Shown here piece by piece: positions 8,105 to 27,329 of a DNA stretch of 64,000 nucleotides. How positions within the stretch are numbered: the first letter of the stretch is position 1; every line of letters starts with the position of its first letter. A model generated the notes under the pieces. The model ran no database searches and was not told where the DNA came from. It was given only the letters and a program-made list of their open reading frames with translations. A program made the translations under genes and the position numbers. Source of the DNA: Sulfurovum sp. TSL6 (GTDB lineage Bacteria; Campylobacterota; Campylobacteria; Campylobacterales; Sulfurovaceae); contig NZ_BPFJ01000002.1 in the NCBI RefSeq assembly GCF_019972115.1, positions 682,001 through 746,000 of the forward strand, in the 5' to 3' direction.

Positions 8105-9124
8105 CTAAAAGTCATCCAGGTCCAGACTTCCTTTGGAATAGTTCGTTACATTCCCTTCAAAGAAGTTTGTCTTTTGATCATTAAACTGTGAAAAGTTGTC
8201 TACCCATTTAATAGGATGTTCCACATTATAGATTTTCTCAAGTCCTACTGCATGTAATCTTTTGTCAGCAAGATATTGAATATACTGTGTGATGATGTCA
8301 TCTGTAAGTCCCAGTATTTGTCCTTGCGTAATATAGGCTCCCCATTCACACTCAAGTTTTACTGCGGATCTGAACATTTCATACACATCATCAATAAGCT
8401 CTTTTGTAAAAAGCTCCGGTCTCTCTTTTTTGGTAGAGTTGATCATGTTTTGGAACAAAAGAAGGTGTGTCACCTCATCTCTTTGAATAAAACGTATCAT
8501 CTGTGCTGTTCCAAGCATTTTATCTGAACGTGCCAATGTATAGAGGTAAGCAAAACCACTGTAAAAGTAGATACCTTCAAGAATTTGATTGGCGAACATC
8601 GCTTTTACGATATTTTCATCTGTTGGATTACTTGTAAGCTCGTCATAGACTTTGGCTATAGCATCATTTTTAGACTTGAGCATCATGTCCCTTCTCCAAA
8701 GCTCATAGATCTCATCAGAGTTTGTAGAGATGCTGTCTACCATTACCGCATAACTCTGAGAGTGTAGCGCCTCTTCAAAGGCCTGTCTTACCAAGATAAG
8801 ATTGACTTCGGGAGAAGTAATAAAAGGGTTCAAATTGTCAATGATGTTATTGGTCTGCAAAGAATCCATAAAGATGAGTTGTGCCAGTACTTTATCGTAT
8901 GCAGACTTTTCTGAATCAGTCAGGTTTTTATAGTCATTCACATCGCGGGTCATGTCCACTTCTTTAGGGAACCAAGTGTTATTTAACATCATTTCCCATA
9001 GGTTATAGGCCCACTGGTATTTGATGTCATTCAGTTCAAATATTCCGGTAGGATCTCCACCAAATATCTTACGTTCATTTGTTGTTTCTTTAGAGTCAGG
9101 GTTGTATATTTTTTTTCGTTCCAT
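8105..9124 (-). CDS. nrdB: Ribonucleoside-diphosphate reductase, beta subunit (class Ia)
   Basis: This is the 339-residue radical-generating subunit of aerobic ribonucleotide reductase. The di-iron and radical residues match E. coli numbering plus three: Asp87, Glu118 and His121 in EEALHSQSY, and the radical Tyr125. The presence of the tyrosine argues for a Y-radical class Ia/b enzyme rather than the tyrosine-less class Ic. AAGG lies 7 nt before the ATG, and a TATAAT -10 box sits at 9175-9180 on this strand. Its partner nrdA is not adjacent: an 85-codon gene and about 1.1 kb of mostly non-coding DNA lie between. Confidence 0.96.
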
Positions 9125-9351: not shown

Positions 9352-9609
9352 TTATTCTTCCCATTTATGTTTATGTGGGGTTCGTTCCAAATACTCATGA
9401 TCATAAATGTCATCATCGTATTCATCGTCTGCATCCGCCCATCCAAAAAATTCATCAGTGAAGACCTTCTCATACCCCATCTCAACAAGCATATCGTCTA
9501 GTATCTGATAATCTGTACCTTTAGTTCTACAATAATGTATAAGCGTTTGCATATCCTCTTCCCCAACCCTGTTTGCTTTCAAAGCAAACTCAATCTCTTG
9601 AAAGGTCAT
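9352..9609 (-). CDS. Small acidic protein upstream of nrdB (unknown function)
   Basis: I do not recognise this 85-residue protein. It begins with a helical part (MTFQEIEFALKANRVGEEDM), has a middle segment with one Cys (IHYCRTKGTDYQILDDMLVE), and ends in a strongly acidic tail (ADADDEYDDDIYDHEY) followed by a basic His-rich end. The ATG at 9609 is chosen over one at 9645 because GAGGAG lies 8 nt before it. It is upstream of nrdB on the same strand, with a 227-nt gap and a separate nrdB promoter, so co-transcription is uncertain. The acidic tail could bind metal or mimic DNA, but that is speculation. The codons look coding. Confidence 0.6.
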   Translation of the reverse strand: MTFQEIEFALKANRVGEEDMQTLIHYCRTKGTDYQILDDMLVEMGYEKVFTDEFFGWADADDEYDDDIYDHEYLERTPHKHKWEE

Positions 9610-9856
9610 CCTGCCCTCTCCTCTTTTTAAATCACTGCTATACAAACAGTTTCTCTGGAAGTTTTATCTTTCTATCCATATTAGAATTATATTTCAAAAT
9701 CTGAGATTTTAAGCTAAAAAAAATCTTAATTTATCTAAAAAAATATTGACTGTTTTGTAACCTATGATGCAGCAGGGTGAAAGTATAAAAAAAGGAAGAA
9801 GAATGATGTCATTTAAGTGATTAGCTCAAGAAGTAACAACTAAAAGGTAACTTTTC

Positions 9857-10033
9857 ATGGGAAATATATTTGAAAAGGGAGATGCATCTTTAGGGAAAAC
9901 AAAGATGACATATAATGTGAAAAGCTACCTAGAAAGCCTGAAGTATCAAAAAGGGATAAGAGTCCTTCATGACTTTCTTGTTGCGAGTATAACTTCATTG
10001 CATGAAGTAAGTGTGAAGTCTGCCCGTCAGTAA
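9857..10033 (+). CDS. Possible 58-residue protein in the nrdB-nrdA gap
   Basis: An ATG-initiated frame of 58 codons begins MGNIFEKGDASLGKTK and has amphipathic helical stretches after it. Its Shine-Dalgarno-like AAAGG (9843-9847) lies in a perfect 5-bp hairpin with a GUAA tetraloop (9842-9855) ending 1 nt before the ATG. A mini-frame of five codons (9803-9820) with a good AAGGA site precedes it. I recognise no family. A 61-codon frame is open antisense to it, so length alone is weak evidence. It could be a real small protein, a leader, or chance within a non-coding RNA. Confidence 0.3.
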   Translation: MGNIFEKGDASLGKTKMTYNVKSYLESLKYQKGIRVLHDFLVASITSLHEVSVKSARQ

Positions 10034-10055
10034 CCATCAAAGAAATGATTTTTAT

Positions 10056-10151
10056 ATGGACAGTGTTATTTTTGATAGACTCAAGCTTCTAAAACAAGAT
10101 AACTTTTGTACATTTTGGACTGTCTTAAGGGAGGTTATTCACATAATATGA
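10056..10151 (+). CDS. Possible 31-residue peptide (weak)
   Basis: A short frame starting MDSVIFDRLKLLKQDNF and ending in hydrophobic residues. It has no convincing ribosome binding site, lies in a different frame from the 58-codon ORF, and its last codons enter a hairpin (10133-10158). It may be decayed coding sequence or chance. Confidence 0.15.
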   Translation: MDSVIFDRLKLLKQDNFCTFWTVLREVIHII

Positions 10152-10158
10152 GAATACC
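10133..10158 (+). ncRNA. Imperfect palindrome/hairpin
   Basis: GGT-T-ATTC-A-CATA faces TATG-A-GAAT-ACC: three paired blocks of 3, 4 and 4 bp separated by one bulged T and one A·A mismatch, with almost no loop. It is the first of two hairpins upstream of the terminator at 10418 and probably part of the same transcript. Confidence 0.4.
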
Positions 10159-10178
10159 ATATAAAAATAAATCAAAAG

Positions 10179-10240
10179 CTATCTAGAAAACCATCGAGGC
10201 TTAAAAAGGGAGGGAGGAGTAACCTCAGTGGTTTTCATAG
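10179..10240 (+). ncRNA. Stem-loop with polypurine loop (candidate structured RNA)
   Basis: GAAAACCA (10186-10193) pairs with TGGTTTTC (10229-10236). Inside, GAGG (10196-10199) pairs with CCTC (10223-10226). Outside, CTAT (10179-10182) pairs with ATAG (10237-10240) across a 3-nt bulge. The 23-nt loop contains GGGAGGGAGGAG, which resembles repeated GGA/Shine-Dalgarno motifs. No known RNA family is recognised. The stem is symmetric, so strand is assigned only from the nearby plus-strand terminator. Confidence 0.45.
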
Positions 10241-10417
10241 TGCTATTATATTCTTTGTGTGTGTAATGATTGTGAAATCTATAGGTAAGGACAACAATAG
10301 AGAAAAAAATTGTACTATGCAAAAAAATAATTGAACTGTAACAAAACATCTTAAATAGTAAGACCAGGACAACTCTACCTGAATGACTAATAAATACTAT
10401 AGTTTTATCGTCAGAAT

Positions 10418-10458
10418 AACCTCTTTTTAGCATCCAAAATAAGAGGTTTTTTTATTTT
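10418..10458 (+). terminator. Intrinsic terminator on the plus strand
   Basis: AACCTCTT (10418-10425) pairs with AAGAGGTT (10441-10448); extra T/A pairs extend into the loop, and a run of T (TTTTTATTTTTT) follows directly. The T run is only on the plus strand, so something is transcribed rightward here although both nrd genes run leftward. Confidence 0.7.
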
Positions 10459-10553
10459 TTCCATATCAGAGGTTAAAAAAGGGTTTAAAGTGTGTTATTT
10501 TGTGAGTTAGATAGCCTATTATTGATTCTATGGATTTATCCTATCTTAGCTCT

Positions 10554-10660
10554 CGTCATTCTCCTACTCAACACGGGAATCTACACGTTTTAGCTATAAA
10601 TAAATTTGGAAATATAAAGTAGTTTGAATTTTGGCTCCCCGGGTCAAACCCTAGGATGAC
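10554..10660. repeat. Pair of inverted dispersed-repeat units
   Basis: Unit 1 (10554-10581) begins CGTCATTCTC and ends CGGGAAT. Unit 2 (10636-10660) contains CCCCGGGTCAA and ends GGATGAC, and is roughly the reverse complement of unit 1. About 55 nt of AT-rich DNA separates them. A closely related unit is at 50101-50130. The arrangement resembles paired palindromic units of REP/BIME type. Confidence 0.5.
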
Positions 10661-10781: not shown

Positions 10782-13151
10782 CTACTGGCAACCTACACAC
10801 TCTTGTGATCTATCTTCAATATCATTAGAAGATTCAGGAGACTGAGATCTTAGATAATAGGTAGACTTCAATCCGAACTTCCACGCATTCATATAAATCT
10901 CATTCAAGTATTTACCGCTCGCTTTGTCCAGTGTGATAAAGATATTCAAACTTTGTCCCTGGTCTAACCATTTTTGTCTGATCGCTCCTGCTTTGATAAG
11001 GAGGTTTTGATCCAAATCATAACTAGGCGTATAGTATTGCCATGTATCAGCGGAAAGATTAGGTGCGACCACCGGGATAAGTCCAGAAAGATTCTCTTCA
11101 AACCATTTTCTTTTATAGACCGGTTCGATGGCTTGTGTTGTACCTGTCAAAATAGAGATAGAACTTGTCGGTGCGATAGCCATAAGGTAACCGTTTCTCA
11201 TCCCATCGCTCTTAACCTTTTCTTTCAGCCCCTGCCAGTCATGGCTGTATCCAAAGAGGCCCCCTCTGTCAACAAGTTTACAAGCATTCTCATTTGCTTT
11301 ATCAATAGGGAAAATACCCTTAGACCAGTCAGAACCTTCAAAGTTCGGATAACATCCTTTCTCCAATGCCAAATTGCTTGATGCTTCGATCGTATAGTAA
11401 GAGAAGGACTCCATCACTTCATCTATTTTAGTGAAGTGATCATGGCTTCCCCACTCTATCTGTGCCTCTGCAAGCATTTGAGCTTCACCCATCACACCAA
11501 GGCCTATCGATCTTGACTTTTCATTGGTCTTCTTTACTTTTGCCAAAGGATAGAAGTTCAAGTCAATCACATTGTCAAGCATACGGATCGCCGTTGGTAC
11601 GACACGCTCCAGATCTTCTTTTGTATGTACGTTAGCAAGGTTGACAGAAGCAAGGTTACATACCGCTGTATCACCATCCGTTTTTTCTTTGTCAACGATC
11701 CATATCTGTTTACCGTTAAGACTGTCTAGTGCTGTCACTTTTTTAGCCGGTTTTGTTGTTCCGTTGTCTACAGTAAGCATCTCATTTTCATCATAGGCTT
11801 CTTGTGTTCCATCTTCAAAGGTAAAACGTGTTTTATAGGTATTCGGTCCTGTATTTTGGAAAATCTCGGTACAGAGGTTGGTACTTCTAATGATACCTGC
11901 ATGCTTGTTAGGGTTTGCTCTGTTCGCTGTATCTTTGAATGTAAGGAATGGGTTTCCTGTTTCAAAATAAGACCTAAGCATCTCTTTCCAAAGACTTTTC
12001 GCAGAGACTCTTTCTCTAGTAATGTTGTCATCAGAGTTTTCAAGTTCTATATAGCGTGCTTCAAACTCTTCACCATAAAGGGTTGTCAACTCTGTCACTT
12101 CAAATGGATCAAAGAGTGTCCACATTTCATCTGCTTCAACTCTTTTCATAAAGAGATCATTGAGCCAGATCGCAGGGAAAAGGTCATGTGCTCTACGACG
12201 CTCTTCACCTGAGTTCTTCTTCAAGTCAAGGAAGTCACGGATGTCAACATGCCACGGCTCTATGTAAACAGCAATAGCCCCTTTACGTGTACCAAGCTGA
12301 TCTACAGCTATAGCAACATCATTGGCTATCTTAAGGAAAGGCACGATACCCCCGGCAGCATGTTTGTGTCCATCGATGTATGAACCCATACCACGGACCA
12401 GTGACCAGTCCCAACCGATCCCTCCACCAAATTTGGAAAGCAATGCCATCTCTTTATATCCGTCAAAGATACCTTCAATATTATCAGGTGTTGACCCGAT
12501 ATAACAAGAACTCAATTGGTGTCTCGGTGTTCTTGCATTTGACAATGTCGGTGTTGCGGCCATGACTTCAAATTTACTCAAAATATCGTAAAACTTTTTC
12601 GCCCATGTCTGGCAGTCAAATTCATTTTGTGCCAAGAACATTGCCACACCCATAAAAAGCTGCTGAGGCAATTCAATAGGTACCCCGCTACGGTCTTTTA
12701 TCAAATATCTGTCATAGAGTGTACGAATACCCAGGTAGGTGAACTGTAGATCACGTTCAGGCTTAATATAATCGTTAAGATCGTCAAGATCATATTTGTC
12801 TTTAAGTCCCAGGACAATACGTCCCTCTTTCTCTCCACGTTCAAAATGTTCACGTAAATGGTTATAGCCTGTAAAGCCCGTTACTTTATGGTAAAGATCA
12901 TAAAGGAAAAGTCTGGCAGCAACAAACGTCCAATCCGGTCTGTCAATGTCTATCTTGTCAACAGCTGTTTTAATAAGTGTTTGCTGTATCTCTTCAGAAG
13001 AGATCATGTCACGAAATTGTAGCTTGGCATCCACTTCAAGTTCACTTTGACTTACCCTTACAAGGCCCTCTACCGCAGCGGCAGTATATTTCTGAATCTT
13101 ACCAACATCTAAAGTTTCTACTCTACCATTTCGTTTAACAACTCTGATCAT
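10782..13151 (-). CDS. nrdA: Ribonucleoside-diphosphate reductase, alpha subunit (class Ia)
   Basis: This 789-residue catalytic subunit reduces ribonucleotides to deoxyribonucleotides together with NrdB. It has an N-terminal ATP-cone (from MIRVVKRNGR), then the catalytic residues: Cys216 (LSSCYI), Asn425/Cys427/Glu429 (NLCTE) and Cys498 (AVCNLASVNL). A C-terminal cysteine pair (CVGCQ) re-reduces the active site. The spacing between Cys427 and Cys498 is 71 residues, against 23 in E. coli, so about 48 residues are inserted. I chose the ATG at 13151 because AAGGA lies 10 nt upstream and the ATP-cone begins there. In-frame ATGs at 13193 and 13220 lack ribosome binding sites. Confidence 0.95.
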   Translation of the reverse strand: MIRVVKRNGRVETLDVGKIQKYTAAAVEGLVRVSQSELEVDAKLQFRDMISSEEIQQTLIKTAVDKIDIDRPDWTFVAARLFLYDLYHKVTGFTGYNHLREHFERGEKEGRIVLGLKDKYDLDDLNDYIKPERDLQFTYLGIRTLYDRYLIKDRSGVPIELPQQLFMGVAMFLAQNEFDCQTWAKKFYDILSKFEVMAATPTLSNARTPRHQLSSCYIGSTPDNIEGIFDGYKEMALLSKFGGGIGWDWSLVRGMGSYIDGHKHAAGGIVPFLKIANDVAIAVDQLGTRKGAIAVYIEPWHVDIRDFLDLKKNSGEERRRAHDLFPAIWLNDLFMKRVEADEMWTLFDPFEVTELTTLYGEEFEARYIELENSDDNITRERVSAKSLWKEMLRSYFETGNPFLTFKDTANRANPNKHAGIIRSTNLCTEIFQNTGPNTYKTRFTFEDGTQEAYDENEMLTVDNGTTKPAKKVTALDSLNGKQIWIVDKEKTDGDTAVCNLASVNLANVHTKEDLERVVPTAIRMLDNVIDLNFYPLAKVKKTNEKSRSIGLGVMGEAQMLAEAQIEWGSHDHFTKIDEVMESFSYYTIEASSNLALEKGCYPNFEGSDWSKGIFPIDKANENACKLVDRGGLFGYSHDWQGLKEKVKSDGMRNGYLMAIAPTSSISILTGTTQAIEPVYKRKWFEENLSGLIPVVAPNLSADTWQYYTPSYDLDQNLLIKAGAIRQKWLDQGQSLNIFITLDKASGKYLNEIYMNAWKFGLKSTYYLRSQSPESSNDIEDRSQECVGCQ

Positions 13152-13386
13152 CTTTTCCCTGTCCTTGTGTGTTGCTTTCTCATCATATTTCATGACAATG
13201 ATTAATCCGATTTTACTCAAATTTACCTTGTGTATTTTTGAAATGTTGCATCATTTTTAGACATCTTTTTTATAAGATTTTGTGATAGTATTTGAAAGAC
13301 TGTCTGGGAGGGAGGTTCCCCTAAGTATAAGGGTTGTTTATAAGAAAAAAAGGTGTGAAAAGTCATGCGGAATATCTATATTTTAC

Positions 13387-26783: not shown

Positions 26784-26868
26784 TGGTGCGGATGAGAGGA
26801 CTCGAACCTCCACGCCGTAAAGCACCAGATCCTAAGTCTGGCGTGTATACCAATTTCACCACATCCGC
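26784..26868 (-). tRNA. tRNA-Leu (anticodon TAG)
   Basis: Acceptor GCGGATG pairs with CATCCGC and is followed by A and an encoded CCA. The anticodon loop is CTTAGGA. It has the long variable arm expected of tRNA-Leu and the T-loop GGTTCGAGTCC. It is the last tRNA of a five-tRNA operon. Confidence 0.96.
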
Positions 26869-26901
26869 ATGTGATTGTTTTACAAAACAATAAAAAGTAA
26901 G

Positions 26902-26978
26902 TGGTACACCCGTTAGGATTCGAACCTAAGACCCTCGCCTTAGAAGGGCGATGCTCTATCCAGCTGAGCTACGAGTGC
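26902..26978 (-). tRNA. tRNA-Arg (anticodon TCT)
   Basis: Acceptor GCACTCG pairs with CGGGTGT (two G·T pairs); CCA is encoded. The anticodon loop CTTCTAA sits in the stem TCGCC/GGCGA, and the T-loop contains GGTTCGAATCC. Confidence 0.96.
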
Positions 26979-27019
26979 ACAAAAAATATAATAATAAATA
27001 CCAAAACTGATACATTAAA

Positions 27020-27096
27020 TGGTACGCCAGAGAGGACTCGAACCCCTAACCCTCAGATCCGAAGTCTGATGCTCTATCCAATTGAGCCACTAGCGC
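27020..27096 (-). tRNA. tRNA-Arg (anticodon TCG)
   Basis: Acceptor GCGCTAG pairs with CTGGCGT; CCA is encoded. The anticodon loop CTTCGGA sits in the stem TCAGA/TCTGA. Confidence 0.95.
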
Positions 27097-27132
27097 TTCA
27101 TCATTTGGGTGGTTACCCTGTTTAATTACCAA

Positions 27133-27209
27133 TGGGGTGGGCGACGGGACTCGAACCCGCGACAAACAGTACCACAAACTGTCGCTCTACCAACTGAACT
27201 ACGCCCACC
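27133..27209 (-). tRNA. tRNA-His (anticodon GTG)
   Basis: Acceptor GTGGGCG pairs with CGCCCAC. An extra 5' G (-1, base 27209) faces C73, the histidine identity pair. The anticodon loop is TTGTGGT and CCA is encoded. Confidence 0.96.
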
Positions 27210-27252
27210 ATAATTAAATGATTACTTATTATTATAATGTTAAATACCTAAA

Positions 27253-27329
27253 TGGTCGGAGTGAAAGGACTCGAACCTTCGACCCCCTGGTCCCAAACCA
27301 GGTGCGCTACCAGACTGCGCTACACTCCG
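27253..27329 (-). tRNA. tRNA-Pro (anticodon TGG)
   Basis: Acceptor CGGAGTG pairs with CACTCCG; CCA is encoded. The anticodon loop TTTGGGA sits in the stem CCTGG/CCAGG. It is the first tRNA transcribed. Confidence 0.96.

What the first reader, a model, noticed from the sequence alone, without database searches (positions are those of the whole stretch)
9720..10460. Cryptic plus-strand transcription unit between nrdB and nrdA
Both nrd genes run leftward, yet a good rightward terminator (10418-10458) sits in the middle of a gene-poor 1.1-kb gap. Upstream of it on the same strand are two hairpins and at least three short frames. This looks like a small RNA or small-protein locus antiparallel to the RNR genes, and could be what keeps nrdA and nrdB apart.
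Basis: partly seen in the sequence, partly recalled or inferred. Interest (0 to 1): 0.55.

Follow-up and report, generated by a model that had tools for sequence, protein, structure and literature searches.

The report
Twin small RNA genes beside nrdB
The gap between the two ribonucleotide-reductase genes of this Sulfurovum-like bacterium holds two tandem copies of a small RNA that matches no catalogued family, on the strand opposite to the one first suspected and next to the scar of a lost citrate-synthase gene; its loops look suited to blocking the ribosome-binding sites of other messages, which remains to be tested.

Summary
The plus-strand reading is mostly wrong. Window 9844-9980 and 10096-10239 are tandem copies of a ~140-nt structured RNA on the MINUS strand, co-directional with nrdA and nrdB. 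In 56 distinct members 97.3% of helix cells pair and 12 of 18 pairs show two-sided changes; on the minus strand there are 51 G-U cells against 4 A-C, which fixes the strand. 55 of 63 distinct copies keep an exact TATAMT -10, 50 of them exactly 8 nt before the first hairpin; most add a tandem TWCACA box. Found in 73 of 175 Sulfurovaceae genomes, 1-4 copies each; no credible hit outside the family; no Rfam match. It lies 64-940 bp upstream of nrdB in 37 of 80 nrdB loci, but at other loci in a third genus, so it looks like an independent gene. Loops carry CCUCCC/UCCC/CUCC, as in LhrC and alpha-r14 sRNAs. Most likely: a trans-acting sRNA that masks Shine-Dalgarno sites, sharing a promoter motif (40 sites against 4 in a control) with envelope-type genes. 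Expression, ends and targets are untested.

The parts
10096..10239 (-). sRNA copy 2: 5' hairpin H1 (10186-10236) and long hairpin H2 (10097-10184)
   Evidence: CM R1 97.7 bits, E 6.8e-16 in own genome; MFE -36.4, z -5.2. This sequence is one of those R1 was built from.
9844..9980 (-). sRNA copy 1: H1 (9932-9977) and H2 (9845-9930)
   Evidence: CM R1 110.2 bits, E 2.3e-18; MFE -36.1, z -5.8. Also in the R1 training set.
10201..10218 (-). H1 loop of copy 2, UCCUCCCUCCCUUUUUAA (SD-complementary)
   Evidence: sequence and fold
9947..9959 (-). H1 loop of copy 1, UUAUCCCUUUUUG
   Evidence: sequence
10245..10276 (-). promoter of copy 2: TTCACA-N5-TACACA-N9-TATAAT
   Evidence: 0-mismatch match to the motif; conserved across copies
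9986..10017 (-). promoter of copy 1: TTCACA-N5-TTCATG-N9-TATACT
   Evidence: 2-mismatch match
10342..10386 (+). relic of the last codons of gltA (a relative ends ..KIARPRQLYTGE*)
   Evidence: blastn W10344-10586 vs L030 75.5%, E 8e-39, running about 40 nt into gltA coding DNA; W10344-10513 vs L046 E 6e-22; sequences
10418..10458 (+). terminator-like hairpin downstream of the gltA relic
   Evidence: stem not conserved
10434..10530 (.). conserved block of unknown role, mostly downstream of gltA in relatives
   Evidence: blastn hits in 20 places; no consensus RNA fold
8105..9124 (-). nrdB
   Evidence: PF00268 E 4e-81; NF007184
10782..13220 (-). nrdA
   Evidence: NF006279
9352..9645 (-). 97-aa hypothetical ORF between copy 1 and nrdB
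   Evidence: relatives in L028, L033 and L035 only, of 80 loci; no Pfam match

Best explanation
Two tandem genes of a trans-acting small RNA family, found only in Sulfurovaceae and in several copies in some genomes. SHOWN by comparison: the structure (a 5' hairpin H1 with a pyrimidine loop, then a long hairpin H2 whose closing stem GGUAACUUUU/AAAAGUUACC encloses a second pyrimidine-rich stretch), the minus strand, a -10 box at a near-constant distance, long linkage to nrdB, other loci in another genus. INFERRED: transcription starts about 5-7 nt after the -10, at or just before H1; H2 also ends the transcript; the redundant CCUCCC/UCCC/CUCC loops pair with purine-rich Shine-Dalgarno regions and block translation of several mRNAs; copies with the tandem TWCACA box are switched on by an activator, perhaps an OmpR-family response regulator, together with secreted and efflux proteins.
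For: Covariation: 97.3% of 991 cells paired and 12 of 18 pairs with two-sided change in 56 distinct sequences, against 87.9% and 8.3 in shuffles, and 43-65% paired when the partner is slid (alignment fitted to the model); 9 of 18 pairs already on the MAFFT alignment of 20, not fitted to a model. Strand: 51 G-U against 4 A-C cells; about 20 against 1 on the MAFFT alignment (my tally of the table). MFE below all 30 shuffles in 61 of 63 distinct RNAs; unpaired CUCC/UCCC sites 2.2 per RNA against 0.8 in shuffles. Exact TATAMT in 55 of 63, 50 of these 8 nt before H1; TWCACA pair with at most 2 of 12 mismatches in 47 of those 55. Spread: 48 of 78 genomes in the genus with R1, 73 of 175 in the family with R2. 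Synteny: 37 of 80 nrdB loci, 38 of 38 hits on nrdB's strand and 64-940 bp upstream; between nrdA and nrdB in four g20 genomes. Non-nrd loci in genus g23. Promoter motif at 40 sites against 4 for the reversed control in the own genome.
Against: No RNA-seq or Northern data. Only 24 of 63 copies have 4 or more T in the first 6 nt after H2, so H2 is a weak terminator in most. One of five covariation measures, further pair types, is not above shuffles (26 against 24.6; 120 of 500 reach it). Loop sequences differ between genera, and 3 of 63 RNAs have no unpaired CUCC/UCCC site. The C3 paralogue and its relatives lack the TWCACA box. 102 of 175 family genomes and 43 of 80 nrdB loci gave no hit; some are incomplete or have little upstream DNA, others are simply without it. 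Complementarity to SD sequence in general names no target.
Confidence: 0.72

Rival explanations
1. A cis-acting leader or attenuator of nrdB: the structured RNA is the 5' part of a long nrdB transcript.
For: Same strand as nrdB and within 64-940 bp upstream in 37 of 80 loci.
Against: Each copy has its own -10 in nearly all cases; in some relatives an opposite-strand gene lies between the RNA and nrdB (sequences); RNA at non-nrd loci in g23; dispersed paralogues in own and other genomes.
Confidence: 0.12
2. Plus-strand small RNA or small-protein unit ending at 10458, as first read.
For: 8-bp stem plus T-run at 10418; short + ORFs.
Against: G-U/A-C asymmetry, 58-aa frame not conserved, gltA relic just upstream of the terminator, no consensus plus-strand fold for the block 10434-10530.
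Confidence: 0.05
3. CsrA sponge: on the plus strand the same loops read GGGAGGGAGG and AAAGGAG, as in CsrB/RsmZ RNAs.
For: GGA motifs in the loops of the plus strand.
Against: Strand evidence; the conserved -10 is on the minus strand.
Confidence: 0.04
4. Miniature mobile element (MITE): H2 arms as terminal inverted repeats, several copies per genome.
For: 2-4 copies in some genomes, tandem copies in the window and in L028.
Against: Copies are diverged yet compensatory, with conserved promoter spacing and old synteny.
Confidence: 0.03
5. The lineage's 6S RNA.
For: RF00013 finds nothing else in the own genome; H2 is a long hairpin with an internal bubble.
Against: Two hairpins, ~140 nt, several copies, C-rich loops. 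RF00013 itself rings in only 5 of 14 control genomes, so its miss says little.
Confidence: 0.03

Closest known systems
LhrC1-5 multicopy sRNAs of Listeria (PMC4132741; abstract and section 'A redundant CU-rich motif' read)
   Same: Several copies in a genome, two stem-loops, redundant UCCC/CU-rich single-stranded sites that recognise the target; LhrC needs a two-component system of envelope stress, and here the promoter box precedes mainly proteins with a hydrophobic start.
   Different: Different phylum (recalled); relatedness tested only through Rfam (no match); targets and regulator unknown here; linked to nrdB; most genomes with the RNA show one copy.
alpha-r14 / NfeR1 / cuckoo RNAs (PMC10746234, passages read; the cuckoo-RNA paper itself is not held)
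   Same: Hairpins with unpaired CCUCCUCCC-type anti-SD motifs over variable stems; NfeR1 is described there as Hfq-independent.
   Different: alpha-r14 has three hairpins with one identical, ultraconserved CCUCCUCCC motif; here two hairpins, and the loop motif varies (CCUCCC, UCCC, CUCC).
RepG of Helicobacter pylori (PMC8322730, passages read)
   Same: Trans-acting sRNA in the same phylum (Campylobacterota, recalled), in an organism stated to lack Hfq and ProQ; pairs with a G-repeat in a 5' UTR.
   Different: Targets homopolymeric G repeats; its C/U-rich loop is recalled, not read; no homology tested.

Membership tests
Any family of Rfam 15 | score above a family's gathering cut-off | tested here: not met
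   No match at 9720-10460 in the window nor over the RNA in 15 loci that hold members; best sub-threshold hit E 2.4, on +
alpha-r14/cuckoo RNA | three hairpins each with CCUCCUCCC | tested here: not met
   Two hairpins in the 20 folds (five with an inner third one in H1); motif variable; definition from PMC10746234
LhrC-type CU-rich multicopy sRNA | more than one copy in a genome | tested here: met
   3 copies in own genome, up to 4 in relatives; but most of the genomes with a hit show one
LhrC-type CU-rich multicopy sRNA | redundant unpaired UCCC/CU-rich sites | tested here: met
   mean 2.2 sites against 0.8 in shuffles; 2 or more sites in 45 of 63 RNAs
LhrC-type CU-rich multicopy sRNA | binds SD of a target mRNA | not testable with these tools
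   needs gel shift or reporter
LhrC-type CU-rich multicopy sRNA | two-component control | tested here: inconclusive
   tandem 11-bp repeat box; regulator not identified
Independent trans-acting sRNA | own promoter-like sequence and position independent of one gene | tested here: met
Independent trans-acting sRNA | detected discrete transcript | not testable with these tools
   no expression data
6S RNA (RF00013) | match to the covariance model | tested here: not met
   own genome 0 hits at E 0.001, by a model that also misses 9 of 14 control genomes
CsrB/RsmZ | GGA motifs in loops of the transcribed strand | tested here: not met
   strand inferred as minus, loops C-rich there

The most novel reading that the evidence does not exclude
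A new Sulfurovaceae family of anti-Shine-Dalgarno sRNAs, multi-copy in some genomes, that serves as the post-transcriptional arm of an envelope or metal-stress response (tandem TWCACA box shared with Met-rich small proteins, outer-membrane efflux proteins and small secreted proteins), and whose ancestral seat between nrdA and nrdB couples that stress to dNTP supply.
Probability: 0.3. Interest if true: 0.7.

Novelty: new member of a known kind. Interest (0 to 1): 0.55.

Why it matters
I found no description of this RNA: no Rfam 15 match and no paper on it among the listings of the searches I ran (8 of 8 papers listed; 12 of 35; 12 of 3,687). A covarying, strand-resolved RNA family with old synteny gives a direct entry to riboregulation in Sulfurovaceae, a group common at vents (recalled). 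It also points to a promoter motif with about 40 sites in this genome. And it is a warning that a terminator plus hairpins can suggest the wrong strand: the hairpin here stands behind a lost citrate-synthase gene.

Tried and rejected
Rejected: a plus-strand unit (strand asymmetry, gltA relic); a 58-aa gene on +; CsrA sponge; MITE; 6S RNA. tblastn of a relative's gltA against the window found nothing significant, the relic being too short (best E 1.5); only DNA alignment shows it. The block 10434-10530 was tested for a consensus RNA fold and gave none of note (a first attempt with a wrong length pattern was useless). The two class-level hits outside the family (G126, G324; E 0.003 and 0.006 among 397 genomes) lie in or across coding frames and were discarded as chance. 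OmpR-family regulator genes near motif sites: 3 of 15 lie within 3 kb by my count, against about 1.6 expected, so no regulator is claimed. A genome-wide target prediction was not done.

Rows dropped: of 22 extracted RNAs 20 went into A1 (L038 with an insert and the truncated L045 left out). The promoter table holds 63 distinct RNAs: 56 from A2 plus 7 of the 8 newer loci (L161 omitted). 8 of these 63 have no exact TATAMT and were left out of the box count (47 of 55). Of 40 motif sites 27 were examined for downstream genes (the 12 non-RNA sites with 0-1 mismatch and 15 with 2); 2 sites are the RNA promoters themselves and 11 were not examined. 3 of the 27 had no SD plus start and left the count. 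The yardstick of hydrophobic N-termini is crude and its two sides used different ORF minima (30 aa with SD; 100 aa).

Full report
WHAT WAS CLAIMED AND WHAT IS THERE. The window lies in a Sulfurovum-like genome (G000:C2:682001-746000; nearest named nrdB locus Sulfurovum sp. AR, 96%). nrdB (8105-9124) and nrdA (10782-13220) both run leftward. A stem of 8 perfect pairs with a T-run sits at 10418-10458 on +; such elements occur at 2 places on the window's + strand and 0.1 on average in 20 shuffles. The short plus frames exist. The 58-aa one was compared in 5 relatives: from the same ATG it stops after 21 codons in L119 and L129, and the ATG is gone in L028, L154 and L029, though a frame stays open in L029. 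The + strand as a whole does not fold unusually (z -1.1).

THE TERMINATOR IS BESIDE A GENE SCAR. In 12 of 31 relative loci that hold both nrdA and nrdB, a plus-strand (window sense) citrate-synthase gene lies between them (partial in L053), in 6 of the 12 with an FAD-oxidase-like gene upstream of the malate:quinone or 2-hydroxyglutarate oxidase kind, the one tested scoring below all NCBIfam cut-offs (counts tallied). The other 19 have no gltA there. Window 10344-10586 aligns at 75.5% (E 8e-39) to L030 and 10344-10513 to L046 (E 6e-22), in both running about 40 nt into the gltA coding end. Window 10342-10386 reads as a damaged gltA end. L028 (strain AR) has the downstream block but no such relic. 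In the own genome PF00285 has one hit, in a 603-aa frame that looks like the ATP-citrate lyase large subunit (that name is recalled). The exact stem of the terminator-like hairpin is not kept in the 20 other copies aligned.

THE RNA. BLAST of the gap against relatives showed a second conserved region. Lined up, it is a two-hairpin RNA, present twice in the window (9844-9980, 10096-10239). RNAalifold on the MAFFT alignment of 20 sequences gives 18 pairs, 9 with two-sided changes. By my reading each of the 20 folds alone into the same two hairpins; H1 has an inner further hairpin in L030, L031, L037, L043 and L075. On 56 distinct members found by the model, 97.3% of cells pair, 12 of 18 pairs have two-sided change, and sliding the partner drops pairing to 43-65%; the count of further pair types is not above shuffles. 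61 of 63 RNAs fold better than all 30 shuffles.

STRAND. A G-U pair on one strand is an A-C clash on the other. On the minus strand there are 51 G-U and 4 A-C cells (that alignment was fitted to a minus-strand model); on the unfitted alignment about 20 against 1 (tallied; the structure was predicted on that strand). An exact TATAMT lies upstream on the minus strand in 55 of 63 copies, in 50 of them 8 nt before H1; the 8 without it are L028 copy 2 and its like in L125 (TATCAT), L139, the truncated L045, three of genus g20 (TACAAT, TAAAAT) and L162 (TATAGT). So the RNA runs with nrdA and nrdB.

DISTRIBUTION. Own genome: 3 copies, the third at C3:346910-347042 beside a gene that reads like a PP2C/kinase fusion (name recalled from sequence). 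Genus: 48 of 78 genomes with R1. Family: 73 of 175 with R2, 3 of 11 genera. Order sample with R1: 11 of 298, all in the family. Class sample with R2: 13 of 397, 11 in the family and 2 weak ones in coding frames. These large searches use stricter filters that lose weak matches. Rfam 15: no match. In 37 of 80 nrdB loci the RNA is 64-940 bp upstream, 38 of 38 hits on nrdB's strand; 43 loci gave none, several with little upstream DNA. In four g20 genomes it fills the roughly 240-bp gap between nrdA and nrdB, which suggests the ancestral place. In g23 it stands at other loci with the same build (L167-L170, L174), and in L168 and L169 H2 is followed by a U-run; over all 63 copies only 24 have 4 or more T in the first 6 nt after H2.

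PROMOTER AND REGULON. Of the 55 copies with TATAMT, 47 carry TWCACA-N5-TWCACA-N9 before it with at most 2 of 12 mismatches. In the own genome this pattern with up to 2 mismatches occurs 40 times, its reversed control 4 times; copy 2 is one of three perfect matches. Of 27 sites examined 24 have an SD plus start close behind; 18 of these 24 proteins begin with a hydrophobic stretch against 15 of 58 window ORFs (Fisher p 6e-5; crude test, unequal ORF minima). They include outer-membrane efflux proteins, Met-rich small proteins, DUF2202 and EF-hand proteins; multicopper-oxidase-like genes lie nearby (name recalled from sequence). Direct repeats 11 bp apart are typical of OmpR-family regulators (recalled); 15 such genes exist, none tied to the box. 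The third copy (C3) and its relatives (L146-L150) have another upstream region.

HOW IT MAY WORK. The loops hold CUCC/UCCC sites, 2.2 per RNA unpaired against 0.8 in shuffles. LhrC uses three redundant CU-rich sites to bind an mRNA and block its translation, and depends on a two-component system (PMC4132741, abstract and one section read); alpha-r14 RNAs use CCUCCUCCC loops (PMC10746234, passages read). I infer the same action here. It works like them; it is not shown to be related to them, and it fails the alpha-r14 definition.

WHAT IS NOT KNOWN. Expression, ends, targets, regulator, and the role of block 10434-10530. Paper searches with Sulfurovum or Campylobacterota and small-RNA terms listed no paper on such an RNA; I saw listings only, and 71 of a small part of the papers found.

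Noticed in passing
window 10434-10530: A block of about 80-100 bp is conserved (70-84%) in 20 places in relatives, mostly just downstream of gltA, with second copies in L044 and L068. No RNA fold of note; the minus strand often shows an ATG followed by a similar N-terminus (my reading). Unexplained.
   Followed up: partly
own genome, 40 sites: Promoter motif TWCACA-N5-TWCACA-N9-TATAMT enriched tenfold over its reversed control, in the part examined mainly before proteins with a hydrophobic N-terminus: a likely regulon.
   Followed up: partly
window 9352-9645 (-): 97-aa ORF without Pfam match, with relatives in only 3 of 80 nrdB loci.
   Followed up: partly
G000:C3:346910-347042 (L141:4911-5043) and L146, L147, L148, L149, L150: Second class of paralogues of the RNA with another upstream region (TTATTTTTTATACAG); L141, L146 and L148 lie beside genes that read like rnr and htpX, L150 near a multicopper-oxidase-like gene (names recalled).
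   Followed up: partly
L038:4299-4497: A copy of the RNA with a large hairpin insert inside H2.
   Followed up: no
L039:9724-9798: c-di-GMP-I riboswitch (RF03167).
   Followed up: no
window 26787-27329 (-): Cluster of five tRNA genes.
   Followed up: no
own genome: PF00285 (citrate synthase) hits only a 603-aa ATP-citrate-lyase-like frame; would fit reliance on the reductive TCA cycle.
   Followed up: partly
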